Shown piece by piece: positions 1,862 through 48,190 of a stretch of 64,000 nt of DNA (position 1 is the first letter of the stretch; the number at the start of each line of letters is the position of its first letter). The stretch spans positions 1 to 64,000 of the forward strand of contig JAYMGJ010000540.1 of assembly GCA_037178675.1 (NCBI GenBank). Direction: 5' to 3'. A program made the translations under genes and the position numbers. This stretch comes from Scleroderma bovista (Eukaryota > Basidiomycota > Agaricomycetes > Boletales > Sclerodermataceae). The notes under the pieces are model-generated. The model was not told where the DNA came from. It saw nothing but the letters and a program-made list of their open reading frames with translations, and did not search any database.

Positions 1862-2451
1862 TTTCTCCCCAGTAACAACGCCGAGTGGGCACATGCCCAG
1901 CTTCTCCGCCTTAGGCAGGGCCCGAGGCAGAGGATTGACGACTTCTTAGCGCAGTTCGAGGCGCTCAAGAATCAGGGAATCCTGGATGCGTGGACGATTA
2001 CGCTCACGATTTGCTTGAACATGTGCTCCAGAGGAAACTCTTGGAGCAAATCTATATACAAGGCATGCATCGGGACATGTATGTTCACCTTGCAAACTCA
2101 GCTCGTGCGATGGGAAGAGCCCAGGAACTCTTCCTCATCAATCTCCAAGGGCAAGGCTTGGCCCAGTATTACCAGGGCCAAAATTATTCGTCTTCAGCCG
2201 CATCCAGGAGTGGTGTCCCTATGGATATAGGTGCCACTGAGACAAACCAGCAAAGGGGTAAAGGGCCCCAATGCTACAATTGCCAATTATTTGGCCATAT
2301 TGCACATGAGTGCACAAAGCCGCACTGCCCTCATCGTGGGCAACCACAAGCACGGGCAACGCAAGCCCAGCCAGAGGATGACCAGCTAAATGCAGTCAGA
2401 GGAATGATGTTTGCAGAAATGCAGGCATTTTTCAAAGGTTTAAAAGATTAG

Positions 2452-3404
2452 TGAGTGAGGACAAATCGGGCATCCTCGCTCTCGAATCTTCTTTGGACAC
2501 AGCTGTATGTGTTCTGGACTATAGACTTTCTCGCGCTACTACTCCTGCAGTGCAGGAAATATTTAAATACTGCATTGCTTTGCTATGTACAAAAATAGCG
2601 AAAACCTACAAAAAAGTGTCTTCTGTAGTTTCTCCTGTCTCGGTTTCTCCTTCTCGCTTTTCTGTTTTGTCAGTTGATAGCATGGACTGTGACTTGGACT
2701 ATACTGCACCTTCTAAGGGCGTCCCTGCAAAGGGCTCAGCGCCGGAAGTAAAATCGAGTGTGCTTAATTCCCGATTGAATAAAAATATTTCTTCTCCTTC
2801 TTTGGCATCTAAGGAACCGGAAAGTCCTGCCAGCAACTTAGGAGTTTCTATGGACTTATGAAGGTCCTTCACAATGGAACGTGAAGTGACGGTACCGGTC
2901 TGCATCCACGGACCACTTAATACTATAAAGGTAGACACTCTGCTAGACAGCGGCGCCACTGGTTGTTTTGTTGACAAGAGCTGGGCTCTTGATCGACGGC
3001 TTCAGTTATCTAAGCTGGTAAAGCCTGTCCCTGTGCTTAACGTAGATGGCACTAGGAATCAGGAGGGCAATATCACGCATTATGTATTGTTGACAGTTGG
3101 TATTGGGAAACATGCTGAAAAGCTGTGGTGTGCCGTCACATGCCTTGGAAAAGTACTGCTTATCCTTGGCCACACCTGGCTTCAAAAGCATAATCCCGAT
3201 ATAGATTGGGTAACCGGCAAAGTTAATTTAACTAGGTGTCCTCCAGAGTGCAAGTCGCTTTTGGAGACACACTTTGCTAAGTTATTACGGGAAAATGAAT
3301 CTCAGGAAACTTGGGTGCAAGCTTTAAAAGCTCATGAATCAAAGGTCACTATTGATGAGTCGACCCTAGAAGAAGCTCAGAAGCAGGTACCTAAAGAGTA
3401 CTGA
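2452..3404 (+). pseudogene. pol: Gypsy-1 pol N-terminal part with retropepsin
   Basis: This reading frame is the same one used by the downstream pol, and differs from that of gag, so pol was probably reached by frameshift or readthrough at the gag stop (2449-2451). An in-frame TGA at 2859-2861 separates a low-complexity Ser/Pro-rich linker from the protease. The protease segment (2874-3404) carries the retropepsin active site LLDSGAT (about 2940-2960) and the LGHTWL motif (about 3166-3183). A second TGA at 3402-3404 follows KEY and precedes EFLDVF; CGA to TGA is the simplest explanation. Removing both stops would join it to the 926-codon ORF. Confidence 0.8.
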
Positions 3405-3443
3405 GAATTCTTAGACGTATTTAGTAAAAAGTCGTCAGAGCGC

Positions 3444-6224
3444 ATGCTGCTAAGAAAACCTTGGGATCATGGAATTGATCTAAAAGAAGACTTCCCGCCC
3501 AAAAAGGGAAGACTTATTCCGCTCTCTGTTGATGAACAAAAAGAAGTTGAATTGTTCCTCGATGATCAACTCGCTAAAGGATATATTCGGCCTTCTATTA
3601 GTCAGCAGACGTCACCGGTCTTCTTTATCCTGAAAAAGGACAGCAAGAAGTGCATGGTACAGGATTACCATTATGTAAACGACTGGATGATTAAAAATAA
3701 CTATCCGCTACCGCTTATCTCTCACCTTGTTGACAAGCTTAAAGGTTGCAAACTCTTCATGAAAATGGATCTTCGTTGGGGTTACAACAATGTGAGGATT
3801 CGCGAAGGCAATGAATGGAAAGCTGCATTTGTAACCCACAAAGGGGCTTTCGAGCCATTAGTTATGTATTTCGGTCTCTGTAATTCACCTGCGACATTCC
3901 AGAAGATGATGAATGAGATATTCCACGATATGTCGGATGTCTGCGTGGTGTATATCGATGACCTTATGATATTTATGGATACAGATGATCAGGAAAAGCA
4001 TGATAGAATTGTGCTAGAAGTTTTGAAACGTTTACGTGATAACAATTTGTTTGTCAAACCCGAGAAGTGTCGCTTCAGAGTCACCAAAGTCGACTTCCTC
4101 AGTATGATCGTGTCATGTGAAGGTATCAAAATGGACCCTGAGAAAGTTAATGCTATTTTGAAGTGGCCTGAGCCAACGAATGTAAAGCAGATTCGTGCGT
4201 TCCTAGGTCTTGGCAATTTCTATAGATGCTTCATTAAAGATTATGCAATCATGGCTAGGCCTATGACGGACCTTACGTGTAAAGATACGGTATTTAACTT
4301 TGGAGAGAAAGAACGCACTGCGTTTGAGGCTTTGAAAGCCGCCTTTACTCGTGCTCCGGTACTTCAGTACCCTGACCAGGACCGCGAATTCCGCCTCGAA
4401 ACCAATGCGTCTGAGTTCGCCATCAGGGGAGTGATATCCATGAAGTGTGAAGACGGCGAATTCAGACCCGTCGCGTACATGTCACATTCCATGACACCTC
4501 CAGAACGAAATTATCCTATTCACAATAAAGAGATGCTGGCCATCATAAAAGCAACAGAGGCCTGGCGCCATTATCTCGAAGCCACTCCTTATGCTTTCGA
4601 GATATATACGGACCACCATAATTTAACATACTTTACTAAGTCACAGAACTTGTCTAAGTGCCAAGCGCGCTGGCAAATGTGGATGACACAGTTTAACTAT
4701 TCGCTTATCTATAAAAAGGGAACCCAGATGCATGTTGCAGATCCGCTTAGTAGGCGATCAGACCATTACATATCTAGTTCCGAAGACAACAAGGACCAGG
4801 TCCTGTTAAACCCGGTATCTATTAAACTGATCGATGTCACTGATCAGTCTTACGAAGAGCGACAGTCACTCATTATGAACTTTCACGATACTCCTGTTGC
4901 TGGCCATAAAGGAGTAAAAGCTACATATAATGCACTCAGGAAGCATTACTCTTGGAAAGAGATGAAGGAGCAGATTCAAACCTACGTAAAGCACTGTCAA
5001 AAGTGCCAACAGTCCAAGGTATCGAATCAAAAGACTTCTGGAAGTCTTGTTCCTCTCCCTACCCCTAGCGGCCTGTGGCTTGACGTCACTATGGACTTCA
5101 CCGAGATGCCGGAATCCCTCAGTTACAATTATATATTAGTCGTGGTTGATCGGTTCTCCAAGGAGGTCGTGTTTGTGCCTTGCACTAAAGAGGAAACCGC
5201 CTTATCAACCACTGAGTTATTTAGAGACCATGTCTGGTGTCAGCATGGACTCCCGTCTTCCATTGTGTCAGACCGTGGATCGGTCTTTGCAAGCAACTTC
5301 CTGGGGAAGTTGTACAGACTCTTAGGCGTAAAAAGGAAAATGTCTATGGCATTTCACCCTCAGACCAATGGTCAAACAGAGCAGTTGAACCATGAAATTA
5401 ATCAGTATCTCCGAACCTACGTAAACGATCGACAGAACAAATGGGACAAATGGATCAAAATTGCCCAGTTCATCTGGAACAACACGGTCTTGGAGGTAAC
5501 CACTGATTCACCATTTGGAATCACCCAGAGTTATTTCCCTCGTATGGGTGTTGAGACGGTGGACACAGTAGCCCCAGCGGCTAAAGACTTTGCCGCCATA
5601 TTTAATAAAGTTGTTGAGTCTTCTGAGAAGGCAAAACGTAATATGAAGCTTCAGGTGGATAAGCATAGAAATCCCACCCCGAACTATGTTGTAGGCCAAC
5701 AGGTTTGGCTTTCTACGGATAACCTTTGTATGCTAAATCATGCTTCTAAGAAGCTTACAGAGAAGTGGATTGGTCCCTATGAGGTCACTCACATAATCCC
5801 GAATGCGGTTGAGCTTAAGCTCCTGAAAACTCTTCGGATTCACCCGGTTGTGAATGTTTCGCGAGTAAAACCTTATTTAGGTCCTCTTCCCGGTCAGCCC
5901 GTGTCTCGGCCTGGTCTGGTATATGTTTCTGAAGAATGCGATGAAGAATACAAAGTAGACTATATTGTGGCTTCTCGTATTTATAAAAGGCAACTCCAGT
6001 ATCTGGTACACTGGAAAGGATACGAAGAACATGAGAGAACATGGGAACCCTCATTGAATTTAAAGAATTCTCCTCTGGTAGTCGAGCGCTTTTACCGAGA
6101 AAACCCCTCTGCTCCTTGGAAACTTTGTATGGCCCAAGCGGACTTTGACTCGTTATTTAGTCATGTCCCTGAAAACCCCACGGTTTGCGATGCTCAGTTC
6201 TGCAGTCTGGAATCCTGCACCTGA
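3444..6224 (+). CDS. pol: Gypsy-1 pol: reverse transcriptase, RNase H, integrase, chromodomain
   Basis: A 926-codon open frame continuing the protease frame after the TGA at 3402. RT carries YIDD at residues 170-173. RNase H has TNAS where the family has TDAS: residue 321 is Asn (codon 4404-4406), a GAT-to-AAT type change that removes the first catalytic Asp. Integrase has an HHCC zinc region ending KHCQKC, then D551, D610 and E646, giving the D,D35E spacing. A chromodomain lies at about residues 839-886 (YLVHWKGY), which in chromoviruses directs integration to heterochromatin. The ATG at 3444 is only the first Met after the stop, not a true start. Polyprotein function is lost. Confidence 0.88.
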   Translation: MLLRKPWDHGIDLKEDFPPKKGRLIPLSVDEQKEVELFLDDQLAKGYIRPSISQQTSPVFFILKKDSKKCMVQDYHYVNDWMIKNNYPLPLISHLVDKLKGCKLFMKMDLRWGYNNVRIREGNEWKAAFVTHKGAFEPLVMYFGLCNSPATFQKMMNEIFHDMSDVCVVYIDDLMIFMDTDDQEKHDRIVLEVLKRLRDNNLFVKPEKCRFRVTKVDFLSMIVSCEGIKMDPEKVNAILKWPEPTNVKQIRAFLGLGNFYRCFIKDYAIMARPMTDLTCKDTVFNFGEKERTAFEALKAAFTRAPVLQYPDQDREFRLETNASEFAIRGVISMKCEDGEFRPVAYMSHSMTPPERNYPIHNKEMLAIIKATEAWRHYLEATPYAFEIYTDHHNLTYFTKSQNLSKCQARWQMWMTQFNYSLIYKKGTQMHVADPLSRRSDHYISSSEDNKDQVLLNPVSIKLIDVTDQSYEERQSLIMNFHDTPVAGHKGVKATYNALRKHYSWKEMKEQIQTYVKHCQKCQQSKVSNQKTSGSLVPLPTPSGLWLDVTMDFTEMPESLSYNYILVVVDRFSKEVVFVPCTKEETALSTTELFRDHVWCQHGLPSSIVSDRGSVFASNFLGKLYRLLGVKRKMSMAFHPQTNGQTEQLNHEINQYLRTYVNDRQNKWDKWIKIAQFIWNNTVLEVTTDSPFGITQSYFPRMGVETVDTVAPAAKDFAAIFNKVVESSEKAKRNMKLQVDKHRNPTPNYVVGQQVWLSTDNLCMLNHASKKLTEKWIGPYEVTHIIPNAVELKLLKTLRIHPVVNVSRVKPYLGPLPGQPVSRPGLVYVSEECDEEYKVDYIVASRIYKRQLQYLVHWKGYEEHERTWEPSLNLKNSPLVVERFYRENPSAPWKLCMAQADFDSLFSHVPENPTVCDAQFCSLESCT

Positions 6225-34681: not shown

Positions 34682-36517
34682 CCTCCACACAAGTGGTGGA
34701 AGCTCAGTACAGAGCAGCTTGAGAATGATATGGAGGATGAAGATGAGGATGCAGATTTGGCATTTCTGAGTGCTGTGTCTGAGCCTAGGACTTATGCTGA
34801 GGTCATGCGTCGCACTGATGCTTCCCAGTGGCACCAGGCTGCCCTGGACGAGCTAGCTGCTCATAAGACCAATGGTACTTGGCGCTTGGTTAGGAGACCC
34901 AATGAATGTAGAGTCATTGGGTCCAAGTGGGTGTTTAAGGTCAAGCGCAATGCTGATGGCTCTATAGATCGCTACAAGGGACACCTTGTGGCCAAGCGCT
35001 ATAACCAGAGACCTGGCTTCGATTACCTCGAGATCTTTGCCCCTACTGTCTGCATAGCCTCCATTCGCATCATCCTTGCTCTTGCTGCTATCCACAACCT
35101 CCATCTGCACTCTGTCGATGTCTCCAATGCATACTTGAATGGGGAAATGGACTGTGACATCTATATGGAGCAGCCTGAGGGATTTGCTAAGGGTGATCCC
35201 AAAGAGTGGGTATGCTTACTGGTCAAGGCGATGCAGCCATCTATGTCATGTGCAAAGGTGATTTGCACATCATCCTTCCTGTCTTTGTCGATGATATGAC
35301 CTTTGTATCACAATCTCTCCCTGCAATTGAGGATATCATCTCCCAACTGCATCAGCACTTCAAACTGTGCGACTTGGGTCCTACATAGAGACCACTCAAA
35401 GTGTATCATTTCACTCTCCCAGCATCACTACTGTCTGGACATTCTCCAGCACTTTGGAATGGCAGACTGCAAGCCTGTCACCACTCTCATGGACCCTGGA
35501 TCACGTCTTGTGCATTCCCAGAGCCCTCAGACCACTCAGGAGGTGACCCAGATGTGTTCCATCAACTATTTGGGTGCTGGTGCACTGATGTATCTTGCCA
35601 CCTCTGCCAGACCAGATATAGTGTATGCTGTTGGTGTTCTAGCATGCTTTAATGTCAATCCTGGCCTGGCCCATTGGAACACAGTCAAGCACCTATTTCA
35701 TTACCTGAAGGGCACTGCTCACTTTGCTTTGACCTATGGTCCAGATTCTTCGTCCTCTGGATTGTTTACCACCTTTAGTGATGCTGATCATGGTGGGTGC
35801 AAGGACTCTGAGCGATCCACCAGTGCATATGTGGTCAAGATCCTGGAGTTCCAAGCTTCAGGGACTTGTTGCCCTGTACACTACAAAGGCTGAATACATT
35901 GCTGCAGTGGTTACTGGGAAGGAGAATGTTGTTGAAGTCGCACGTGCACCCGGCGTAAACCGTCGACGAAGTGCGCACAAGATTGCGACCCATATTAGTG
36001 TAGACTTAGTAATAGTCCTCTTTAGAGTAGATGTTACATGTCACACGTCATGCGTCACAGTCACGTGTCACACTATTTGTTGTATATAAACAGCATCCAC
36101 CGCTTATATAATATAACAGCTCTTAACCAGCTACCGCTACCATCTCTGGTTGTGCACTCCACCCAACAGGTGAGTTGGAGTAGCAGTTCCTCTACGTATA
36201 TAGGTATTGCTTCAACAAATGTCTGGTTGCGCAACCTACTCGATGAGATGGGCTTCTCTGTTAGTGCTCCTTTGATCCTGCACACTGACAACCAATCTGC
36301 CATCCAAGTAGCCAAAAATCTGGAGCATCATGGATGCATGAAGCACCTGGATTTGCACTGGTTCTGGCTGAGAGATGGGGTGGACCAAGGGCTGATTTTG
36401 CCTGTGTTTGTCCCCACTACTGAAATGCCTGCTGATCTGTTGACCAAGCCTTTGGCTCGTGTCAAGGTGCAGCAGTTCTGTGAGATGCTGGGACTGGTGC
36501 CATCAGGGTGGAGTTAG
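34682..36517 (+). pseudogene. pol: Copia-2a reverse transcriptase and RNase H
   Basis: RT begins AALDELAAHKTNGTW and is open to about 35230, where a frameshifting deletion joins LLVKA to DAAIYVMCKG and removes the QGGNRW part. FVDDMTFVS is intact (about 35287-35315). A smaller deletion at about 35383-35390 removes QLLGIKI and shifts frame. RNase H then reads SLSQHHYCLDIL... through FSDADHGG; LTR E (35930-36217) is inserted at KEN|VWLRNL. After removal of LTR E and one AATGT the end is in frame to a stop at 36515-36517. Confidence 0.85.
35930..36217 (+). repeat. solo LTR E, CpG-rich copy
   Basis: Runs TGTTGAAGTCGCACG...TTGCTTCAACA, 288 bp, TGTTGAAG/CTTCAACA tips, perfect duplication AATGT (35925-35929, 36218-36222), TATATAAA box near 36085. 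About 15 CpGs by eye, so young. No internal region of this family is in the window. Confidence 0.94.
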
Positions 36518-36547
36518 GACTATCAGATGTGCACAATCATGGGGGAG

Positions 36548-36891
36548 TGTTAGTTTTGGTGATTTCCACCTCTTCTTATGAGTGTATTACTTACTATCAT
36601 GGTCTACCCTACTTACTACCAAGTTGTTTTAGCTTCATAGCTGCATTGTAGCACTAGATGTGCCCTTGACTTGTTTCCTTGACTTGTTGTTTACATTTGT
36701 TTACCCAGAAGCAAACATACCCTGTAGAGTCCAGCGTTTCTCCTCTTCAGTTCCTCACACTGGACTGTGGGTGCTGTATACCTCTCTACAACTGTCTATA
36801 TCATTAGTTACTCACACTGGACTCTAGTCTGGACCTTATTTGAGCAGCTCAGCAGCACTTTGTGCGCTTCCAGCAAGTTTTGGCCTGAACA
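36548..36891 (+). repeat. 3' LTR D of Copia-2a
   Basis: Runs TGTTAGTTTTGGTG...TGGCCTGAACA, 344 bp, preceded by GGGGGAG. It is followed directly by a piece of LTR D in reverse orientation. Confidence 0.9.
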
Positions 36892-37990
36892 GTAAGTAGG
36901 GTAGACCATGATAGTAAGTAATACACTCATAAGAAGAGGTGGAAATCACCAAAACTAACACTCCCCCATGATTGCACACCTCTGATAGCCCTAACTCTCC
37001 CCTGATGGTGCCAGTCCCAGCATTTGACAGAACTGTTAGGCATTTCAGTAGTGGGGACAAACACAGGCAAAATCAGCCCTTGGTCCACCACATCTCTCAG
37101 TCAGAACCAGTGCAAATCCAAGTGCTTCATGCATCCATGATGCTCCAGATTTTTGGCTACCTGGATGGCAGACTGGTTGTCAATGTGCAGGATCAAAGGA
37201 GAACTAACAGAGAAGCCCATCTCATCAAGTAGGTTGTGCAACCAGACAATCTCCTCCACAGCCTCCACTGCAGCAATGTATTCAGCCTCTGTAGTGGACA
37301 GGGCAACGAGTCCCTGAAACTTGGAACTCCAGGAGACAGCTCCAGTACCCATCTTGACCACATATGCGCCGGTGGATCGCCCAAAGTCCTTGCACCCACC
37401 ATGATCAGCATCACAGAAGGTGGTAAACAATCCAGAGGATGAAGAATCTGAGCCATTGGTCAAAGTAAAGTGAGCAGTGCCCTTCAGGTAATGAAATAGA
37501 TGCTTGACTGCGTTCCAATGGGCCAGGCCAGGATTGGCATTAAAGCGTGCTAGAACACCAACAGCATAGGCTATATCTGGTCTGGTAGAGGTGGCAAGAT
37601 ACATCAGCGCACCAACAGCACCCAAATAGTTGATGGAACACATCTGGGTCGCCTCCTGAGTGGTCTGAGGGCTCTGGGAATGTGAGAGGTGTGATCCAGG
37701 GTCCATGGGGGTTGTGATAGGCTTGCAGTCTGCCATTCCAAAGTGCTGGAGAATGTCCAGACAGTAGTGATGCTGGGAGAGGGAAATGGTATGCTTTGAG
37801 CGGTCTCTATCAATCTTGATGCCCAAGAGTTGCGTGGTAGGGCCCAAGTCGCGCAGTTTGAAGTGCTGACACAGTTGGGTGATGATATCCTTAATGGCAG
37901 GGAGAGATTGTGATACAAAGGTCATATCATTGATAAAGACAGGAAGGATGATGTGCAAATCACCTTTGGACATGACATAAAAAGTGGGAG
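36892..37990 (-). mobile_element. Copia-2b, 3' end only, tail to tail with Copia-2a
   Basis: Plus-strand order: the last 69 bp of LTR D reversed (36892-36960), purine tract, RNase H and part of RT. The 5' side stops at about 37990, just before LTR A. Confidence 0.85.
36990..37990 (-). pseudogene. Copia-2b RT-RNase H fragment
   Basis: A 290-codon minus-strand frame (37973-37101) covers the RT palm to RNase H, continuing after a TAG/TGA break towards FVPTTEMP. The catalytic RT motif reads FINDM instead of FVDDM: the first Asp is Asn (around 37925-37935). QLLGIKIDRD, STTEAEYIAA and HIDNQSAIQ are well kept. The upstream third of RT and everything before it is missing. Confidence 0.85.
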
Positions 37991-38016
37991 AAAGGTGTGT
38001 TATCTACGCCAGTTGT

Positions 38017-38248
38017 GTCAAGTTGTCAGGATTGGTTCTCCTCAATGATCTTACTAGAAGGTCCAGGATTGCAGGGGACTAATGAGGAGGTAATTCCAGA
38101 CACTAGTAGGTGCTAGTTAGTGCTGAGAGTCAAGTCCAGGTCATACAAAGTAAGTCCAGACACTAGAGGAGTACAGAGAGTAAGTCCAGGTTGTATGGAG
38201 TAAGTCCATACCACAGGAAAGTAGTCCAGAATTAGCACAGTTGTTCGG
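38017..38248 (-). repeat. LTR A, left part, split by the 38.2-45.9 kb element
   Basis: Starts TGTCAGGATTGG on the plus strand and ends GTTGTTCGG at the inverted-repeat boundary. The right part resumes at 45877. Confidence 0.85.
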
Positions 38249-38310
38249 TATGACATTAAATCTGCACAAATATTATTTACTCCGAATTGGATTGCACAGG
38301 GTGTCTGACC
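38249..38310 (+). repeat. left terminal inverted repeat
   Basis: Reads TATGACATTAAATCTGC... to ...GGGTGTCTGACC. Mismatches with the right end are all transitions. Confidence 0.85.
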
Positions 38311-38869
38311 AAAATGGCAAGAATTTCACTTGGTAATATACTTCTTAAATTATTAGTAGTAGGCTAAAGACCATGCCCCAAGTTTATTGGCCTTCAGTGG
38401 TTAGTTTTTGAAGGGAAACAGACATTTCGAGTCAATGCTCTAAGTGCTTATGTAAGAAAAGTGAAAATTTGACCTCTGTCCTGTTCCTGCTTTCCACAAC
38501 AGCTTCCCAGCACACCAGGGTGCTGTAGTACAGGGTATTGATAGATAAAATGCAATGTAGTGTGCTGCCACCTGTAGCTGGGGTACTGGTGGACCAGTGA
38601 GGTCATGAAGGTGTACTACTAGGATGTGCACTTATGTAAGCAGCCCCTTGAGCTTGAAAATTTCACTCTGGCCTGCTTCACTCTGCAGCACAGCTCCAGC
38701 TACCATTCTACCAGTTCAGCTCCTCCTAGACCCTGGTTCTTACCTCCATGGGGTCCAATCATAGGCAGGGTAAGGGAAGAAAGCATAAATCCTGATCAAA
38801 TTGGGACTCAAAGCCATGTGAGTTGTACCAGCACCACATATCTTACTGCATGCTTACCAGGGTAATGTT
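38311..38869. other. subterminal region, no confident gene
   Basis: Short open pieces exist (38626-38865) but show no domain. Some of it may be the first exons of the dioxygenase gene. Confidence 0.35.
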
Positions 38870-40904
38870 AGTCATTGCTTATGTGAATGATCTCAGGCTC
38901 AAAGGAGAATTTAGAGGGCTCTTGGCCACTGATCTCATTGGGCCATCCGCAAAGTTCAGGGCTATTTTCGATGGTGCTACTAAGCTCACCCCTAATGCCC
39001 CTAATGAACTTAAGGTGAGTGCCATCCTTTTACTACCTATAGTTCTATCTGCTAAGGATACACACTAAAGACAGATGACTTCATATACCTTGGGCATTCA
39101 GTAGTAGCCAGATCAGACAGCTAGCTCTGCAATGTCTTTGATCAGCTGTCCAAGATTCAAGATGAGGCAAAGGCAACTTCTGGTACTGCCTCTCACTGGG
39201 CCAAGCATACACTGGTATGTTTTCTTATCTGTTCATGATACTATTCATGTGTCTCATGAGATAGTAGGTTCACTCCTTGTCTCTGGACAGCCTGCCCTAC
39301 TGCTTATTTGACCACTGGCATGGTAGTGAGGATGCAAATACTGTCATTATGGGTCCCTATGGTCCAGTCTCCATCATCCAGCGTGAATGGGGTGCAAAGC
39401 CATTTGGTTTACATGTGGATATGACCAAGGTTCCAGCTGACAGTGTAAAGGGTAATCATGCCCTTGTTGACAAGACAACAGGGTTTTATGCTGTTCAGCC
39501 TGATGAATCAGTGATTTTTGTGTCAGATAAAGATGGTGAGTGGAAAGTCATGGCATTGGCTAATCTAGGCTGATTTTTTAGGTAAACCTGCTATTGAGCT
39601 TGTTGTTATCCAAGGTGTTGGGATGAACTCATCTGTGAGTACATCACTATTTGGGTGGCTGCAGGAGGTGGTCGATCATGCCTGTGCCAGCCACCATGAT
39701 GTTCGAGTATGTCATGCCAACTATCATTGAATACTGCACTCATATACACATTGACAGCCAAACCATCCAGGGAAGATGGTTCAGGCTGATCTCAATATGG
39801 GTCCTCGGCATGCACGTGTTCTTGGTTGGGCAAAAAGCTTTAACAAAAACCTCAACAGTGAGGATAGAATCATGCAGGACCAAGAGGTAATCGGTGCTAC
39901 TAGTCTAATGTGGAGTCTCATTCAGTTAGCTGTACCACTTGAGATCTCTGAGCATGTGATGGAGTGCTTGAAGAAGGAATCACTTCCAACCCTTGCCACG
40001 AGGGATGTTAAGACAGGTGAGTGGTGATTATTTGGTGTCCTATCATATTTATTCATATATTTTAAAGGCTCTGGTTTTCAGATTGTATTGAATGGGCACA
40101 TTTTCTCCTTTAAGGAGGCAAACCGTGCCCCTCCTGAAACATATCTTGCTTGTGGTTATGTTGCGTATGCATCTATCTATTGCAGATGGAATAGTGGCTA
40201 ATGTCTTCATAGCTGGTCACACATAGATCCTGCATATTGTACCTGGGCATTTTCTTTGTGTGTTGGCAGGGAGACAGGAACATATTCTCCCCCCCAGTCT
40301 GCCACTACCTGCCCAACATGGGGAGGATCCAAGTAGGCTTCAACTTCCCAGAAGATATCCCAGCCATTCATTGATGGTGGGGGAGCAAACTTTGTTGATG
40401 CCACCTTAAAGGCCGTTGTCAAAGCTGCAGTTGGTACTCTTTTTATCTTTCAACCAGACCAACTTCATGGGACAACACTTGCCTATGGAGCTGTGAATCA
40501 TAACATCGCAATCACTTTTTCTCAGCGTGTTGCAGATGGATATAGGGAGGTGTTGGTATTGAGTGTTTGTGCACTCTTGTTGTACTTATGGATGCCTTTT
40601 TTAGTGATTACTTCAGCTCCTTCCTTTTATGGATCATCACATGATTAGTGGCTTATGTTTTCCTTTGTTTCTCTTTGTTTGCTTTGTTTGTATAGTTGAA
40701 ATTTTCGTGCCCAGAGTCTCTTCTCTTCAGTCTCTGACACTGGGCACTAGGTCTGTATCCTGTAGCTATCCTCTCAATTTAGTCTCTGACACTGGGCACT
40801 AGAGTGCTTATTTGTGGTTTATCTTAACAGGAGGTACTGGAAAAAGGTCAATCCATTTCTTCTGGAGGTGGAGCTGGAGAGGGAAATCCAGCCAATAATA
40901 AGTA
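38870..40904 (+). pseudogene. TET/JBP-like 2OG-Fe(II) dioxygenase, broken
   Basis: A multi-exon gene with several GT-AG introns (e.g. about 39211-39265, 39636-39665, 40017-40081). The C-terminal half looks like a double-stranded beta-helix dioxygenase: HID at 40218-40226 in SHIDPAYCTWAF (the Fe-binding HxD), His in DQLHGTT at 40466-40468, and Arg in TFSQRV at 40526-40528 (2-oxoglutarate binding). GGGANFVDATLKAVVK precedes the distal His. Upstream is a conserved block GPRHARVLGWAKSF. I infer the basidiomycete TET/JBP-type family, known for expansion with DNA transposons and for oxidising 5-methylcytosine. Frame breaks and stops near 40203-40360, plus LTR C (40551-40829) in the last exon, inactivate it; excising LTR C restores the frame to TAG at about 40902. 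Another 2OG oxygenase is possible. Confidence 0.55.
40551..40829 (+). repeat. solo LTR C in dioxygenase gene
   Basis: Runs TGTTGGTATTGAG...TTATCTTAACA, 279 bp, with perfect duplication GGAGG (40546-40550, 40830-40834). Confidence 0.94.
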
Positions 40905-40997
40905 GTGCATTCATATTTATGTAATGTAATATTGAAACCACTCCATTTCTTTTACTACATTAACTTGATTTCTCTCTGTCCTTGTATACTTGAGAAG

Positions 40998-41651
40998 TTA
41001 CAAAGTAACAAAGTACTGCTGAACTGCCTCGACTGCACCACTGATAATCTGCTCCTTGGCATCCAATGCACCACTGTCCACAGCCTGTTTAATGATTTCC
41101 CCCTTACACTCCATATTCAAACTGATTGAATGAGCTTGAGTAGCCACATACTCCACAATTCCACTAAGAGCGAGGGGACTGACAGGATGAAGAAGTTGGT
41201 GAGCAACCTTTTGCCACCAAAACTTAGCCCATGCATTTCTGCACTGGGAGTGCTGAGTAGCATTACAGCTGGTGGAAGGTCCAAGAGAGAGACCAGGAGG
41301 TACAGCTGCAAGAGTCCTTCTCTCTGTATCCATGACTTCATATGCTTTGGCAATAATAGAGTACACCTGAAGCCCAAGCCAATGAGTATCGTCCTCAGAA
41401 ATTATTGAGAAAAGTGAAAGGATCAGAGTGCAGATGGCAGGTGCAACCCACTGAGGAATAGTGTACATGTGTGCCAGTTTGAGTTTGTGTGCAGGAGATA
41501 GGTCAAGCTCATTGAGATGATCAATGACCCACTGGATACTGTTCTTGACCATCCACAGTCATGAGACCTTTAGGATTGCCACAAGAGAGGGAACATCCAG
41601 CTGATGTAAACCCTCATATCTGACAGTGATCTTGATTTTCTGGTCTGCCAT
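40998..41651 (-). pseudogene. BTB/POZ-type protein, C-terminal part
   Basis: Minus strand. ATG at 41651 (MADQKIKITVRYEG) leads to LHQLDVPSLVAILKVS, then TGA, then 184 open codons (41552-40998). The block DLSPAHKLKLAHMY...IPQWVAPAI, YSIIAKAYEV and the late Cys-rich HSQCRNAWAKFWWQK are typical of Agaricomycete BTB proteins, which I know only as a large family of uncertain function. The N-terminal BTB fold is mostly missing. It is convergent with the dioxygenase (94 bp apart) and divergent from the transposase (about 60 bp apart). One TGA (likely CGA) breaks it. Confidence 0.55.
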
Positions 41652-41709
41652 TTTCATAGTCTTAAGCCACAGTCTGGCCTTTGGTACCTATCTGGTTCCT
41701 TAAATCGCC

Positions 41710-43051
41710 ATGGGCTACGCATTCAGAGGCAGCGTATTGCTGAATCTCTTCGCCATGTTGATCCTCTTGGAAGAGTACTTCGGTGCCGTACCACTATCTA
41801 TTGCTGGCAATACCAGGTATCCCACCCCAATGCTCTGTGGCACATGGATGGGCATCACAAACTTATTTACTGAGGCATCGTCATTCATGGAGTTATTGAT
41901 GGATATTGCCAAACTGTAAGTGCTAGATTTTCAGATGATATGTTTAATGTCATGGACTTTGGTAGGCTGTTGCATTGGAAGCTCATACCAACAACAATTC
42001 CTCCACTGTGCTAGAAACATTTCTACATGCTGTGAGCAAATATGGACTGCCATCTCGTGTCTGTGGTGATAGGGGAGGTGAGAATAAAGAAGTATCAATT
42101 TTCATGATTATGGCACAAGGACCCAATAGAGCCAGTTTCATGTGGGGAACGTAAGTGTATCAGACTTCTTTATGACTATTCACATGCTGTAACATTACAC
42201 AGATCCACTCATAACACCCGCATAGAGCGTTTATGGGTTGAAATTGGGGTCCACTTTGCACGACCATGGCATGCATTCTTTTCTCGGCTTGGGAGGCTTC
42301 ACCATCTTGATCACTCTGATCCACATCATTTGTGACTCCTCCACTATCTTTTTCTCTCAGAGATCAATGCTGACTGTGCAGCATTTTGTGAGGAATAGAA
42401 TGCTCACCCTATTTCTGGAGAAGGGCATGATCAAAGCCCTAATGTAGGTGTCGCAATTCTATAATATAAGTAAAGCTAATCTAGGATTGGTTCTACTAGG
42501 ATATGAGATTTATTGGACAGCTTGAGCATGGCCTTTATGTCGACAATGACCTAACCATTCATCCTGAAGTCATGAACCACTATTATGGTTCTAGGATTGC
42601 CAGCCAACAGGAGCAGACCCATAGTGAGACTAACTTAGACAAGCAGGACAGTGACGAAGAATGGGAGGAAGTGGAGGATGATGAAGCAGTAACCAGTGAT
42701 CACCATGCAGACCTTACCTCCCGAATTGCAGAAGAACAGGCCCCACAGTTTCTGCATGAACCTGCCGATGTTCCCAAGCAAACCAATCCATTCAATCACC
42801 AGGGCTTGGAAATTGTTTTCAAGCAAGCATTGGACAAGGTCCAGGGACTTGGTCATATACCTTCAGGATTAGGTATACAAGAGGAGGAGTGGGATGATGA
42901 AGGATATTATGAAATGGAAGCCATTCTTTCTAAGCGACGAGGGCAAAAGGAACTTGTGATCGAACTCCCACATTTCCTCTGGTATCCCCAAGCAGTGAAA
43001 TGGTGCCAAGCACTCGAGGTTCTTAATTACACTATGGCTTTAGTTGACTAG
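41710..43051 (+). pseudogene. integrase-core (rve-like) DDE transposase, broken
   Basis: Exons joined by GT-AG introns (about 41918-41967, 42150-42201, 42447-42500) encode a basidiomycete integrase-core protein. Catalytic residues are all visible: D in LWHMDGHHK (about 41835-41861), D in CGDRGGEN (about 42061-42084) and E in NTRIERLW (about 42212-42235). The C-terminal exon (42503-43051) starts MRFIGQLEHGLYVDN and carries an acidic linker. Three in-frame stops are seen, and each falls where relatives have Trp: TGA after KLIY, TGA in HHL-LLHYLF and TAG in CEE-NAHPISG. It is the best candidate for the enzyme that moved the 7.6 kb unit. The N-terminal helix-turn-helix region upstream of 41710 is not resolved. 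Confidence 0.72.
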
Positions 43052-43238
43052 GCTGTATTCATAAACTCTGTTTGTCTAGTTGAAGTACAATGCACATTGA
43101 ATCTGCTAGCAGGGTGACCTGTGTGAAAATGATTTGTAATGCTATGCCACTGTCTTTTTTGTGTCTTTGTGCTTCGTCACGACTCTGAACCATCTTCCTT
43201 TCATTCATTTTAAATATCATCTCTCCTTAATACACACT

Positions 43239-43620
43239 TGAGACGACCCTAGGCAAACACCAAGGACCCAACCACACACTAAGACTCTGAGAGGAATAGG
43301 ACATGAGTATCTAGAGCAAAGACCCAAAATGAGCTCAAATGGAGAGCCTCTGGGTGCTGGATTGCACTGTATATATACTACTATACACGAGGGCTACACG
43401 AGGGCTACACGAGGCTATCCATGAGGCTATGTGCAGGCAGAAGGCTATGTAGTGACATCACTGTGGAGCTAAGGCTATGCGTAATGATGTCAAGGGTGGC
43501 AGCGTGTACAGCATGAGGCACAGGTCTAGACTAGGTAGATAAGATAGAGGCTGTACACTAAGATAAGATAAATGCTATCTAATCATAGATTAGATAAGAT
43601 AAAAAGTTGGTCCATAACAA
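43239..43620 (-). repeat. solo Gypsy-1 LTR
   Basis: Plus-strand TGAGACGACCC...GGTCCATAACA, 382 bp, with perfect duplication ACACT (43234-43238, 43621-43625). It proves the LTR ends used for Gypsy-1. Short CACGAGGGCTA units are tandemly repeated inside (about 43386-43415). Confidence 0.93.
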
Positions 43621-43641
43621 CACTCCTTTGGACATTTACCC

Positions 43642-45149
43642 ATGGGCAGGCAGCTAAAGAGGAAAAGAGTCATGTCTTCTTTAGAGGATGAAGACATTCC
43701 TGCCTCTCAAGCCCAGTCCTCGTCATTCATTGTTGACTCTGTCTTGAGAACAATGCTCTCCAAATCCTCAGCTTCATCTAGCACTCACCCACCTCTCTCT
43801 CAGTCTTTGTCCACTCCCTTATTTGTCTTGTATAGGCAGGCTAATCTTGAGGCCAACAAGGGTCTCAGAGGAAAGGCGAGGTCATCAAAGTCAATGGGTG
43901 GATGAATAGCCAGTGGTGGTGCTTTCAAAAACCAGGTACTATATGACATTCTATCTAATAACTAGTCTAATCTGTGTCATATAGAGCAAACATGGTCAAG
44001 CAAAGATTTTGACCTTCTTCATTTCTCGCATTGTCTTTCTCCCTGATGGTACTGATGAGGTGAGCCATCATCCTAAATAACTATTGTTACAGTTAATCTA
44101 TTTACCTACTATAGCCTGATGATATGGACATCAGCAAGCTCAGTCTCAAGCATCTGTTTTCCATTCCTTGTCGTTCCAAAGGTCTCACGAGTGCTGAGCT
44201 CAGCAGGCTAGAGGCTGTTAGCCTTGCTCAATCAGACTTTCACAACTATTTTGAGTTTGACAGGGATTGGGATTTTTTTAGGTTGGATGCAGAACTTCGT
44301 ACTTTATTTCCTAGACTGTTTTCATATTTTGATCAGTGCCCCAAGGTATGTGCACATTTGCTAGCTTTTTTTCTACTCCTGCTCATCTATGATAAGGTGA
44401 TCAATAAGGACTATGAGAGCTCACAGGACTCTTGTTTCAAGTATCTTCCTCCTTATCTTCTCTGCCTCAGAAGCCACAAGGAGATCGCTGTTGTTAGTGG
44501 TGTCAATTTTCCCACTGGTGAGGTCATCTTCGAGAAAGTCAAGGCTGGAAAGAGGCCTGTCAGAGACAAGGCTGAGCTTATATTTGGTATGCTACTACAT
44601 CCACTTGCTTCATCTATGCTAATATATACTATGGTATGTATACTAGTGACACGAGATGTGATTCCACATAGGATAGTAGAGGAATGGACTCAATCAACAA
44701 GCAAAGGAAAGGGGAGAAGAAATGCAGCCGACTCCTCATCTGACTCTATATAGCTGATTTTGCATCCAGAAGAGCTGGGTCAGATAGTGAGGCCAAATCT
44801 CTGGATGATTTCATTGCAGCTCGTCGTCCAAAATGAATATGTATTGCTAGTAAGTCCCCCTGTATTCAACCATATATCATTGCTGGTATACCCTCTAACA
44901 ACCATAATAGAAACCAGTGACACTCCTGTTGCTGCACACCAGGTCAAAACATCTATGATTGATCTTATAGAGGGACCCTCTGGTCCTCCAGATGGATGTT
45001 CCCATGGCCTCGTCACTTGAGCCACAGATGGTTACTGCCCCCTCAACTCCAATCAACACTCAGGCCATCCACCCCCCACCATCAGGTTCTTTCACTGTTG
45101 ACGAGTCTCTTGCTAACCCATGGAAGTCTGGTCGCACATTTAATTTCTG
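43642..45149 (+). pseudogene. unknown multi-exon gene in the 7.6 kb unit
   Basis: ATG at 43642 (MGRQLKRKRVMSSLED) starts a Ser-rich exon that meets TGA at about 43903. After introns near 43935-43985 and 44060-44115 there is a long exon (44124-44753) with LDAELRTLFPRLFSYFDQCPK and LPPYLLCLRSHKEIAVVSG. The last exons include SGPPDG and end FTVDESLANPWKSGRTFNF at about 45149. I recall similar Agaricomycete hypothetical proteins but know no function. It may be a cargo gene of the transposon or an older host gene. A stop in exon 1 and small breaks suggest it is dead. Confidence 0.45.
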
Positions 45150-45445
45150 ATCCTTGCTGCTTGCTTCTCCTTAGTACATATACTACATATACCCATTGCC
45201 TCACATATACTATGCCCATTGCTTTGCATATACTATACCCTTGATATACTCTTCATTCAAAAGTACATGCTATCGCTTTACAACTTACTGAACATAAAAA
45301 AGAAAAACCACATGTAGTAGCCTTTTAATACCAGTTATTTCCTGTAATGGGTAGTAGTCAGTGTGTGATCAAGATTTGGATAGTGAAAGTGAAAGGAGCT
45401 CAGGCCTATAGCTAGTGTGAAAAAAAATCAATGGTACAAAATACC

Positions 45446-45552
45446 TTTTTTTTTTTACACAGGGAGGGAATTGAACTTAGACCTTGTGGACTCAAGCCTG
45501 CCAGCATTAATTCACAGCTGGGGATGAATCCATTAGACCATAATGCCAACAC
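45446..45552 (-). repeat. tRNA-like SINE module, minus strand
   Basis: Read on the minus strand: box A TGGTCTAATGG (45540-45530), box B AAGTTCAATTCC (about 45478-45467), then an A-rich tail (T run 45446-45456 on the plus strand). It is a Pol III promoter-type unit. No target duplication was found by eye. Confidence 0.5.
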
Positions 45553-45559
45553 TACAAAG

Positions 45560-45814
45560 CAATGATTTAAGCCTATGACTCCAATGCCCCTACAGTACTA
45601 TACCACAACTTCAAATAAACTATTATCAAACTTCATAGTCACATCTACTTGTAATCGATACTAGGCAATATTTGCTAATCAAGGATTATAATTATTGCTG
45701 TCCAAAATGTTCAGACATATTGCTGTTCTGTTTGGACATATTGCTGTTTTGTTTGGGCATGTTGTTGTTTTGCTCAGACATGTTGCTGTTTAGTCTGGAC
45801 ATACTTGTCATTCT
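45560..45814. repeat. subterminal repeats before right inverted repeat
   Basis: Five drifting units of about 22-25 bp with the core (C/G)ACAT(A/G)TTGCTGTT, between 45700 and 45800. Subterminal arrays of this sort often bind transposase in cut-and-paste elements; that role is inference. Confidence 0.6.
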
Positions 45815-45876
45815 GATCAGACACTCTGTGCAATCCAATTCGGGGTAAATAATATTTGTGCAGATTTAACGTCATA
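45815..45876 (-). repeat. right terminal inverted repeat
   Basis: Inverse of 38249-38310, ending ...GATTTAACGTCATA. Confidence 0.85.
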
Positions 45877-46548
45877 GTTCAGAGCAAAGGACAGTAAGTC
45901 CAGACACTAGAGGAGTACAGAGAGTAAGTCCATACCACAGGAAAGTAGTCCAGAGTTAGCACAATTGTTCAGAGCAAAGGACATCCCAGAGGTGGGATAA
46001 GTCCTAAGGTGTCTAGCATCAAGTTCAGGACAGGGGTGGCTTTTGCCCTTGTGTGAGTAAGAGACTTGCTAGGAGCAGACATAGGACCAAGGGGATGAGA
46101 CAGGACAGAGGCTGGAGTTGGCTGGAGTTCAGGAGAACAAGATGGAATTAGAAGAGCATGGGTAGTACAGAGGTGAGGAGTATCTTAGTCAAGATTTGAT
46201 CTAAGGACTACTAGGCCAGAGTATGGTAGTTTATATAGGAGTGAAAATGAAGGTGAGTATATATGGTGACAAGTAAACACATTGATAGTGGCACAAGGGG
46301 TGGAGCAGAAACAGACAGGAAAATAAACTAGGTATAGGAAAATAAACTAGAGCAGAAGCAGACATGGGAACTAGGATTACAGGGTCAATGGAACAGATGC
46401 AGGAATGACTGTGGTAAAGGGAACTAGATCAGAACAGGACAAGTAAGGGTCAGAGGTGGACTTAACTAATGTTAAGTCTGAAGCAATGTCCAGGACCAGA
46501 GGAAGTAGGACTGGAGGAAGTGCAAGAGTGGAGGGAGTGCACAAGTGA
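45877..46548 (-). repeat. LTR A, right part of split copy
   Basis: Resumes GTTCAGAGCAAAGG. An AGTAAGTCCAGACACTAG block of about 100 bp occurs here again although it is already present in the left part (about 38148), so the original LTR had a tandem duplication. The end is truncated at GTGCACAAGTG. Confidence 0.78.
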
Positions 46549-46588
46549 TAAACCCCCTTCTATATAGCAAACCAGTTTTTCCTGATGT

Positions 46589-46778
46589 TGGAGAATCCCC
46601 AGCTCACCATGGAGAATTCTCAGCCCACCTTGGAGAATTCCCAATCCACCGTGGAGAATTCCTGACCCACTGAGGAGAATCTCAAACCCATCTTGAAGAA
46701 TCCTCAGCCCACCTTGAAGAATTCCCAACCTGCTGTGGAGAACCCCCAGCTCATTTAGGAGAATCCTTGGACACTCCC
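46589..46778. repeat. 21-bp minisatellite, about nine units
   Basis: Units follow TTGGAGAATTCCCAGCCCACC with drift and are exactly 21 bp, so frame is kept. On the minus strand (ORF 46827-46462) this gives a heptapeptide repeat of type GGLGILQ. Confidence 0.88.
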
Positions 46779-46844
46779 CAACCCAACTTGGAGATTCTCC
46801 ATTGTGCTTTGGAAAATTCTTTACCAATCTTGGTCAATGATGGT

Positions 46845-46989
46845 CTCAGAAAAGGTCTATTCAGGCTGCAGAATGTTTTATTTATTCCAAATCAATCATC
46901 TAGAAGCAGATTTATTCACTCTGAATCAAGTTCTATTCATTGCAGATTAACCTGTTAGAAAAAGGTATATTTAGGCTGGAGATAGTTCT
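46845..46989. repeat. GGCTGGAG-type interspersed repeats, left block
   Basis: Sentences of type AAAGGTCTATTTAGGCTGGAG recur near 46848 and 46965 and again right of LTR G (near 47708, 47790, 47845 and 47892). Confidence 0.65.
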
Positions 46990-47680
46990 TGTCACAACTG
47001 CATGACACCTTGTGACTCCACAAGACCTCTAGCCTGTTGTAGACTCAAGTCCAATCACAATCACACACCTCCAATGCTATGTACCCATCTCCACTCCAAC
47101 ATTTGATGCTCTGTTTCTTTTTAGTAAATAATTCTGTGCTTACACTTCCAGTTATTGTATGCTTCCATTCTGCTTCTGTTCTTGCTTCCTTTGTTCCCAT
47201 TTTAGATTAGATCTAATTACTCATAGCTGTGTTCTGTTAACCTTTCAATCCATTATGCTTATCACTGATCTCTGTTCCATGTATGTTACTCATCCATTTG
47301 TCATCTGTAGACTCTTACCTACATCTTCACTATGTCTCTCCTCTGCCTCTTGGTTACTGTACATATCCAATGGAAAGTATAAGTACTCTACACACTGAGG
47401 AGATTGTCCCTCAGTTCAGATATCAGCTTGAATACTTCCTGTGAACTCACCTCTGTTCTCCTCTGTCTCCTCTGCCTTCTGGCAACTCTGAGCTTTGTCA
47501 GACCTCTGTCTCTCTGTCCCTTTGTCCTCCAAAATACAAGGACACAGGTATTGCAAGGGCCCAGCACACACACTGAAGTCAAGTCCTCAGACCTCTCTGC
47601 AATCTCTCTGCTTATCATTGACAACCCTTCAGACTTATCTCTACTCATGTCAGAGTTCATCGGAAGAACTGGTTCTGACA
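46990..47680 (+). repeat. solo LTR, orphan family (LTR G)
   Basis: TGTCACAACTGC...GGTTCTGACA, 691 bp, flanked by GTTCT (46985-46989) and GTTCC (47681-47685). Its target is one of the AGTTCC-bearing repeats. It has a pyrimidine-rich U5-like end. Boundaries are less certain than for the other solo LTRs. Confidence 0.65.
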
Positions 47681-47699
47681 GTTCCATTCATATCATATT

Positions 47700-47925
47700 A
47701 CTTACCTAGAAAATGATCTATTAGGCTGGAGAAAGTTCCAGTCATACCCCATTCATCACTGAGAAAGAGATCCATTTGAACTGGTAAAATGGTCTATTTG
47801 GGCTGGAGAAAGTTCCAGTCATACCACACTCATCAACTAGAAAAAGGTCTATTTGCACTGGTGAGAGTTAGATCAATCACTGAAAAAATGATCTATTTAG
47901 GCTGATCTAATTATCTCAGGAACAG
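47700..47925. repeat. GGCTGGAG-type interspersed repeats, right block
   Basis: Four units with GGCTGGAGAAAGTTCC or derivatives, some followed by AGTCATACC(A/C)CA. Confidence 0.65.
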
Positions 47926-47929
47926 CTGG

Positions 47930-48190
47930 ATATAAGTCTTATGGGGTAGTAGCAGCCTGTTGGGAGTGTGTATATGCATCAGCAAGTTGACAATTGGTCT
48001 TAACCCATTTATGGTGTCTGGATGGTCTGAAATCAGAGGGTTAAGATGGATAAGTGTGATAAGTTGGTCAGACCAGTCAGACCAGCCAGACTAGCCATAG
48101 CAATCAGACCAGTAGTCAGTCCGACCAGCCAGATCATTCAGATCACAGTCCCCCAGGCTATTCAGTATTCAAGAACATCAGATTACATGA
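47930..48190. repeat. AGACCAG-rich short repeat tract
   Basis: A run of CAGACCAG/CAGACTAG/CCGACCAG units at about 48060-48130, reminiscent of the TCTGA arrays at 13.8-14.6 kb in reverse orientation. No gene. Confidence 0.5.

What the first reader, a model, noticed from the sequence alone, without database searches (positions are those of the whole stretch)
38249..45876. A 7.6 kb inverted-repeat transposon that appears to carry a TET/JBP-like DNA-demethylation enzyme
Seen: matching 62-bp inverted termini in a split LTR A, subterminal repeats, and relics of an integrase-core DDE transposase, a 2OG-Fe(II) dioxygenase with HxD, distal His and Arg, a BTB protein and an unknown gene. Known: fungal TET/JBP genes are expanded and linked with KDZ-type DNA transposons. 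Here the neighbour enzyme is of the integrase-core type, not a KDZ transposase that I can recognise. Inference: the dioxygenase could counter methylation-based silencing of the element, and the genome shows CpG decay. This pairing may be an undescribed element type.
Basis: partly seen in the sequence, partly recalled or inferred. Interest (0 to 1): 0.92.

Follow-up and report, generated by a model that had tools for sequence, protein, structure and literature searches.

The report
Mushroom transposon carrying dioxygenase-like gene
A decayed 7.6-kb fungal jumping gene in this window belongs to a family whose intact copies carry four genes, one of them looking like an iron-dependent dioxygenase that might help the element escape DNA-methylation silencing, although it could not be shown to be a true TET enzyme.

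Summary
38249-45876 is an inverted-repeat element (TIRs 71/79 identical, TA..TA ends, target duplication GTTCGG/GTTCAG) inside an LTR. The four genes are a real unit: a complete copy elsewhere in the genome (C182:19154-27259, 8,106 bp, perfect AATATG duplication) carries dioxygenase-like, BTB, integrase-core transposase and unknown genes between its termini. So does C267:75796-85347, whose partial near-twin on C799 differs by 20 substitutions in 7,422 sites. The gene segments compared show purifying selection. Ends, duplication and transposase fit the known IS3EU/GingerRoot superfamily. The window copy is dead: two nested solo-LTR-like inserts, a deletion that removed the BTB domain, stops, CpG decay.

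The TET/JBP label is not established. HxD and distal His are kept (Arg in three subfamilies), but Tet_JBP does not match at E up to 10, a profile of five of the genome's own TET genes shows no relation, and both structure predictions failed. TET+ IS3EU elements were published in 2025 from rusts and a truffle, with an alpha-kinase gene. A BTB gene and an HxD dioxygenase of unrecognised family make this a new variant of a known kind. That the enzyme counters silencing is plausible, not shown.

The parts
38249..45876 (+). whole element, in the orientation of the transposase gene
   Evidence: TIRs, TA..TA ends and 6-bp duplication
38243..38248 (.). left target-site duplication GTTCGG
   Evidence: 5 of 6 letters equal to the right copy
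45877..45882 (.). right target-site duplication GTTCAG
38249..38327 (+). left terminal inverted repeat
   Evidence: 71 of 79 with the right arm
45798..45876 (-). right terminal inverted repeat
45708..45791 (+). subterminal 21-bp direct repeats
   Evidence: family D4
38796..40905 (+). decayed dioxygenase-like gene (several exons; HID from 40220, distal His near 40466, His in place of Arg near 40499)
   Evidence: tblastn with the spliced C267 copy 1 protein, pieces from 38871 to 40555; motif positions; outer ends approximate
40551..40829 (.). nested 279-bp insert, TG..CA, GGAGG duplication (solo-LTR-like), inside the dioxygenase gene
   Evidence: absent from the same place in the C748 copy; ends and duplication
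40998..41612 (-). C-terminal part of the BTB-protein gene; BTB-domain end deleted
   Evidence: 46% to the C182 BTB protein; about 1.1 kb more lies here in C267 copy 1
41616..43051 (+). decayed integrase-core (rva_4) DDE transposase gene; start approximate
   Evidence: Pfam PF24764 pieces; 73% DNA identity to C267 copy 1
43239..43619 (.). nested 381-bp insert, TG..CA, ACACT duplication (solo-LTR-like); 35 other places at 89-92% listed
   Evidence: absent from the C75 copy; copies; duplication
43642..45150 (+). decayed gene of unknown family
   Evidence: 67-68% DNA identity to C267 copy 1; hit by the C182 protein at 44172-44597

Best explanation
The locus is a dead copy of a DNA transposon of the IS3EU/GingerRoot kind. 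In working copies the DDE transposase (rva_4 core) cuts at the TA..TA inverted ends and inserts with a 6-bp duplication; the structure is shown, the catalysis inferred. Three accessory genes travel with it: a 2OG-Fe(II) dioxygenase-like protein, a BTB protein encoded on the strand opposite to the transposase, and a serine-rich protein of unknown family. The most likely job of the dioxygenase is to oxidise methylated cytosine on the element's own DNA and so delay silencing and CpG decay (inferred). The BTB protein may be a dimerisation or Cullin-3 adaptor that deals with host factors (inferred from recalled knowledge of the family).
For: Complete C182 copy with perfect AATATG duplication and all four genes; complete C267 copy 2 with 98.99%-identical ends over 99 bases and all four genes, and a partial copy on C799, 99.6% identical over 7.4 kb, whose flank beyond the dioxygenase-side terminus differs from that of C267 copy 2, which points to recent movement. 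Same four genes and order at about 67-75% DNA identity in C267 copy 1. dN/dS below 0.3 in the conserved segments compared: dioxygenase 0.149, transposase 0.058, BTB 0.295, unknown 0.144 between C182 and C267 copy 2; dioxygenase 0.173 between C267 copy 1 and the window. 5 of 13 dioxygenase loci lie within 7 kb of one of 30 transposase loci (weak ones included), binomial chance 6e-8. CpG observed/expected 0.66-0.68 in C267 copy 2 and C799 against 0.13-0.20 in C75, window and C748, and 15 of 20 substitutions between C267 copy 2 and C799 are CpG transitions, so these elements meet CpG-directed mutation.
Against: No sequence test places the dioxygenase in TET/JBP or in any 2OG family. Both structure predictions failed (mean pLDDT 34.7 and 33.2). 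CpG decay occurs in dioxygenase-bearing copies too, so any protection is incomplete; methylation was not measured. C516 carries the dioxygenase without the rest. C267 copy 2 shows no target duplication, so its surroundings may have been rearranged, which weakens the flank comparison with C799.
Confidence: 0.45

Rival explanations
1. The same IS3EU-like element, but the dioxygenase-like protein acts on something else: histone methyl-lysine, N6-methyladenine, RNA or a protein side chain, possibly of the transposase complex.
For: It matches no TET/JBP model while the genome's true TET genes match readily. The motif set HxD..H..R is common to the whole 2OG superfamily (recalled).
Against: Its recurrence in a CpG-decaying transposon, and the published recurrence of TET genes in IS3EU and other fungal transposons (PMC12730594), make DNA the simplest substrate.
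Confidence: 0.3
2. The gene is a highly diverged TET/JBP of the published PU or PE type in a mushroom IS3EU element, so the case is a plain new member of Kojima's TET+ IS3EU set.
For: Kojima reports that PE-type enzymes are linked to TET only through structure-based comparison; IS3EU carries TET genes in rusts and Tuber.
Against: PE type has HxE; here it is HxD (HVD, HID, HTD, HQD). PU type is reported only from Pucciniomycetes. The neighbours differ: BTB and an unknown gene instead of an alpha-kinase; none of the 8 alpha-kinase hits lies on the contigs of these copies.
Confidence: 0.15
3. The protein is not a dioxygenase at all; the HxD/H/R pattern is coincidental and it is an accessory transposition protein.
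For: No family match at E up to 10 other than weak unrelated ones (Nup85 0.013-0.031, an antiporter model 0.073, lectin chains 0.9); failed fold predictions.
Against: H, D and the distal H are invariant in the five sequences aligned, with a GG..F..GT..F..LHG..N.R segment that looks like the 2OG core (judged by eye). Purifying selection.
Confidence: 0.1

Closest known systems
TET+ IS3EU transposons of Pucciniales and Tuber indicum (Kojima 2025, PMC12730594)
   Same: 6-bp duplications, TIRs over 30 bp, TA ends, a DDE transposase with a dioxygenase gene in the same element.
   Different: Reported rust ends TAYGG..CCRTA (here TATGA..TCATA); reported to have the TET gene between transposase and alpha-kinase (here dioxygenase, BTB, transposase, unknown; no alpha-kinase found); here the dioxygenase does not match Tet_JBP.
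IS3EU/GingerRoot superfamily (PMC10045372)
   Same: TA..TA termini and 6-bp duplications are stated there as typical.
   Different: Passenger genes; relation to Repbase transposases could not be tested.
AG-type TET/JBP of Kyakuja/Zisupton elements (CcTET)
   Same: Passenger 2OG-like enzyme in fungal DNA transposons; this genome gave 150 Tet_JBP matches, 150 of 159 candidates scored.
   Different: hhalign Prob 0.4% between five of ours and five of those; different transposase.
Plavaka and KDZ elements
   Same: Abundant in this genome (166 KDZ and 148 Plavaka matches) and described as TET carriers in PMC12730594.
   Different: The four C182 proteins match neither family at E up to 1.

Membership tests
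IS3EU/GingerRoot DNA transposon | TA..TA termini | tested here: met
   TATGAC..GTCATA in the window; TATGAA..TTCATA in C182 and C267 copy 2
IS3EU/GingerRoot DNA transposon | 6-bp target-site duplication | tested here: met
   C182 AATATG/AATATG; window 5 of 6; C267 copy 2 shows none; other copies lack one end or were not examined
IS3EU/GingerRoot DNA transposon | DDE transposase with integrase-type core, no HHCC domain | tested here: met
   rva_4 212.8 bits in C182; the Pfam scan at E up to 1 lists no integrase zinc-binding family; D, D and E read by eye
IS3EU/GingerRoot DNA transposon | transposase clusters with Repbase IS3EU in a tree | not testable with these tools
   no Repbase here; protein database switched off
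TET+ IS3EU of rusts (Kojima) | ends TAYGG..CCRTA | tested here: not met
   TATGA..TCATA
TET+ IS3EU of rusts (Kojima) | alpha-kinase gene in the element | tested here: not met
   8 alpha-kinase hits in the genome, none on C539, C182, C267, C799, C748, C75, C166 or C447
TET/JBP dioxygenase | match to Tet_JBP (PF12851) | tested here: not met
   none at E up to 10 for the spliced C267 copy 1 protein and the five family sequences of A1, none at E up to 1 for C182; HMMER's filters drop most matches above about 0.1; control: 5 of 5 genuine ones match
TET/JBP dioxygenase | HxD, distal His, Arg of the 2OG core | tested here: met
   H, D and distal H in 5 of 5 aligned; Arg at +11 in C267 copies 1 and 2 and C516; His there in the window, C748, C673 and C182, the last with Arg at +10; this motif set is not specific to TET
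TET/JBP dioxygenase | fold nearest to TET/CMD1 | tested here: inconclusive
   two AlphaFold jobs, pLDDT 34.7 and 33.2; no fold search made
TET/JBP dioxygenase | activity on 5-methylcytosine DNA | not testable with these tools
   needs an experiment
PE-type TET | HxE in place of HxD | tested here: not met
   HVD, HID, HTD, HQD
AG-type TET (CcTET-like) | sequence similarity to CcTET-like proteins | tested here: not met
   hhalign Prob 0.4, no PDB hit; control A2 hits CcTet at 5.1e-30
KDZ transposon | KDZ transposase inside the element | tested here: not met
   Pfam scan of the four C182 proteins at E up to 1 shows no KDZ
BTB/POZ protein | match to PF00651 over its cut-off | tested here: met
   C182 protein 24.5 bits, cut-off 20.5; the window copy has lost this part and has no hit

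The most novel reading that the evidence does not exclude
IS3EU-like elements of this fungus carry a fourth, hitherto unrecognised type of transposon-borne DNA-modifying dioxygenase (HxD, no sequence relation to the AG type found and differing in motif from PE), kept by selection together with a BTB partner and exchanged between elements as a module: between C182 and C267 copy 2 the dioxygenase block is inverted and its synonymous divergence (0.66) is lower than that of the transposase (2.07).
Probability: 0.3. Interest if true: 0.72.

Novelty: new variant of a known kind. Interest (0 to 1): 0.52.

Why it matters
Transposons that carry their own anti-silencing enzymes are a current topic in fungal epigenetics. 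This family adds a lineage and gene set that the one paper found on TET+ IS3EU does not list, keeps the genes under purifying selection, and has near-identical copies in one genome, so its dioxygenase can be expressed and tested on methylated DNA. If it acts on 5mC without any detectable TET sequence, similar enzymes are probably being missed by family searches elsewhere.

Tried and rejected
Rejected: TET/JBP by family model. PF20515 in the genome gave 0 hits, but the control did not ring either, so that search says nothing. Tried: profile-profile comparison with five of the genome's TET genes (nine such loci were read, three near-duplicates and one whose longest frame was not TET were left out), PDB profile search, Smith-Waterman against shuffles, 9 pairs, the best reached by 26 of 300 shuffles, the others by 59 to 268. 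Tried: AlphaFold twice on single-frame readings with retained introns; useless confidence, so no fold search was run. A first structure alignment (A3) misplaced short exon pieces and was replaced by A4 and A5, one more misplaced row being dropped. Considered that the four genes met by chance: rejected by C182, C267 copy 1 and C267 copy 2. Considered that the C516/C259 dioxygenase sits in the same element: no transposase, BTB or unknown-gene hit in C516:18700-29300; for C259 only 3.1 kb was read, and C639 and C472 were not read. The Rfam scan of 36000-48000 found nothing. dN/dS used chosen conserved segments, which lowers dN, and dS near or above 1 is unreliable. Literature: six completed searches; PMC12730594 was read in the outline, passages, section 3.2, section 3.4 and part 1 of 2 of the Discussion, its supplements not at all; PMC10045372 in passages only; other papers as search listings.
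Full report
What is there. The element is exactly 38249-45876. Its ends form a 79-bp inverted repeat with 71 identities, begin TATGAC and end GTCATA, and are flanked by GTTCGG and GTTCAG. Both flanks belong to an LTR with other copies in the window. Inside are two nested inserts, each TG..CA with a 5-bp duplication: 40551-40829 and 43239-43619. Partial copies on C748 and C75, 92-96% identical piece by piece, lack the first and the second insert respectively. The C748 copy has lost its left end (match starts at element base 74), and the C75 copy stops at element base 6938 beside LTR sequence.

Is it a unit? Yes. C267 copy 1 has the same order at about 67-75% DNA identity: dioxygenase-like, BTB (reverse), transposase, unknown gene, the last interrupted by a copia element. 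Its left end is probable by eye; its right end was not found, because C267 copy 2 lies next to it. Relative to it the window has lost about 1.1 kb between the BTB part and the transposase. C182:19154-27259 is complete: 8,106 bp, termini TATGAA..TTCATA, first 100 bases of both ends identical, AATATG on both sides, all four genes inside. C267:75796-85347 (copy 2, called E2 in scripts) is complete too: ends 98.99% over 99 bases, all four genes, no target duplication found. The C799 copy is 99.6% identical over 7.4 kb, 20 substitutions in 7,422 aligned sites, and ends at a contig edge; its flank beyond the dioxygenase-side terminus is different, so it is probably a separate insertion.

What the termini bound. 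The window's 62-bp end has 4 matches in the genome: its own two, C167 and C15. On C167 only the right end and the last 0.8 kb match; on C15 only the terminus matches, and no tblastx match to the element was found in C15:63633-74000 or C167:41000-45625. The 100-bp C182 end gave 13 matches. Pairs: C182 (four genes), C267 copy 2 (four genes), C166:7011-18496 (dioxygenase and unknown gene; no BTB or transposase hit, having scored 150 of 340 candidates), C165:21480-25551 (none of the four). Single ends: C447 (BTB, transposase, unknown), C799 (dioxygenase, BTB, transposase; contig edge), C14 (dioxygenase; near a contig edge), C673 (dioxygenase and BTB in the same order), C338 (no hit). So deletion derivatives exist.

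Where the dioxygenase occurs. 25 matches at 13 loci in the genome. 5 of 13 lie within 7 kb of a transposase hit (30 transposase loci, four of them below the family cut-off; binomial chance 6e-8): C539, C182, C799 and C267 twice. Four more have another element part: C748 (BTB and the first part of the transposase at the contig edge), C166, C14 and C673. C516 and C259 (99.4% alike over 3.1 kb) do not fit: no transposase, BTB or unknown-gene hit in 10.6 kb around C516. C639 and C472 were not read. All 23 hits of the unknown gene are on contigs with these elements: C182, C447, C166, C267, C75, C539.

The transposase and BTB. The spliced C182 transposase matches rva_4 with 212.8 bits, its BTB protein PF00651 with 24.5 bits over a cut-off of 20.5. 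Among more distant transposase loci, pieces of about 3 kb from C219, C206, C573, C546, C517, C202 and C237 show a BTB-like hit of 30-34% identity upstream on the other strand; those from C26, C676, C309, C61, C151, C192 and the second C202 locus do not, although C26, C676, C309 and C61 have BTB-like hits farther away. None of these contigs has a dioxygenase hit. That suggests BTB plus transposase is the older core and the dioxygenase an addition in a subset. TA..TA termini and a 6-bp duplication are the published marks of IS3EU (PMC10045372, passages).

The dioxygenase-like protein. H-x-D (HVD, HID, HTD, HQD) and a distal His in HGTT are kept in the five relatives aligned; Arg 11 residues on is present in C267 copies 1 and 2 and C516, and His stands there in the window, C748, C673 and C182 (C182 has Arg one residue earlier), which CpG decay (CGN to CAN) could explain. 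Beyond the motif every test for TET/JBP was negative: Pfam at E up to 10 (only a weak Nup85 match), NCBIfam (one weak antiporter match), PDB (only lectins at E 0.9, nothing), hhalign with five of the genome's own TET genes (Prob 0.4), shuffled Smith-Waterman. Controls worked: 5 of 5 TET sequences match PF12851 and their profile hits CcTet at 5.1e-30. Both profiles are shallow (5 sequences). Structure prediction failed twice, so kinship with TET at the fold level, the level at which PE-type enzymes were recognised (PMC12730594, section 3.2), is open.

Selection and decay. dN/dS (Nei-Gojobori, chosen conserved segments) between C182 and C267 copy 2: dioxygenase 0.149 over 301 codons, transposase 0.058 over 315, BTB 0.295 over 196, unknown 0.144 over 141; dioxygenase C182 against C516 0.06 over 208 (dS 4.7, saturated); C267 copy 1 against the window 0.173 over 301. 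CpG observed/expected falls from 0.66-0.68 in C267 copy 2 and C799 to 0.36 (C182), 0.30 (C267 copy 1), 0.20 (C748), 0.19 (window) and 0.13 (C75); 15 of the 20 substitutions between C267 copy 2 and C799 are CpG transitions, 34 of 113 for window against C748, 28 of 105 against C75 and 6 of 45 against C167. These elements therefore meet CpG-directed mutation, as methylation would cause; methylation itself was not measured.

A module? Between C182 and C267 copy 2 about 2 kb holding the dioxygenase is inverted (E2 335-2317 against L072 5990-4028, 76% identity) while the other genes keep their direction. Its dS (0.66) is lower than that of the transposase (2.07), BTB (0.95) or unknown gene (1.26). 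This fits exchange of the dioxygenase between elements, as Kojima proposes for TET genes, or inversion with slower divergence; it is suggestive only, since dS above 1 is saturated.

Prior art. PMC12730594 (December 2025; abstract, passages, sections 3.2 and 3.4, part 1 of the Discussion read) lists TET+ IS3EU from seven Pucciniales species and Tuber indicum, says that all TET+ IS3EU have the gene between transposase and alpha-kinase, and for Agaricomycotina names five TET+ lineages: Kyakuja, Zisupton, EnSpm, Plavaka and Helitron2; BTB does not occur in its main text. The search for IS3EU with dioxygenase returned this paper alone. Its supplements were not read.

Verdict. A real, apparently recently mobile IS3EU-like family with a conserved four-gene cargo; the window copy is a fossil of it. 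New variant of a known kind. The demethylase idea is reasonable, with the TET identity neither shown nor excluded. The host is inferred to be an agaricomycete from its CcTET-like genes and KDZ/Plavaka load; it was not identified.

Noticed in passing
G000 genome: 150 Tet_JBP matches, 166 KDZ-transposase matches and 148 Plavaka matches in a 51.8-Mb genome, not all candidates scored and some genes matched in pieces: a strong TET/KDZ expansion.
   Followed up: partly
C516:22700-25800 (L074) and C259:32400-35500 (L075): Two copies, 99.4% alike over 3.1 kb, of a related dioxygenase gene (HQD) lie beside a CCHC zinc-knuckle-like reading frame (by eye) and, for C516, no transposase of this family within 10.6 kb; possibly carriage by another kind of repeat.
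   Followed up: partly
C30:89400-93518: An alpha-kinase hit lies 3.4 kb from a weak rva_4 hit (27.1 bits), resembling the published IS3EU gene pair; a different branch from the window's family.
   Followed up: no
window 45458-45556 and C267 copy 1 near both ends: A stretch resembling a tRNA-derived sequence (A-box and B-box like, by eye) near the right end; it occurs inverted at both ends of C267 copy 1. No Rfam or ARAGORN hit there.
   Followed up: partly
window 43239-43619: High-copy 381-bp solo-LTR-like repeat with 35 other places of about 89-92% identity listed in a capped search.
   Followed up: no
C267 copy 2 (E2), about positions 2050-3700: Long repetitive block between the dioxygenase and BTB genes in C267 copy 2 and C799, with no match in the C182 copy.
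   Followed up: no
window 46569-46778: Tandem 21-bp units (GGAGAAT-like) downstream of the element (family D1).
   Followed up: no
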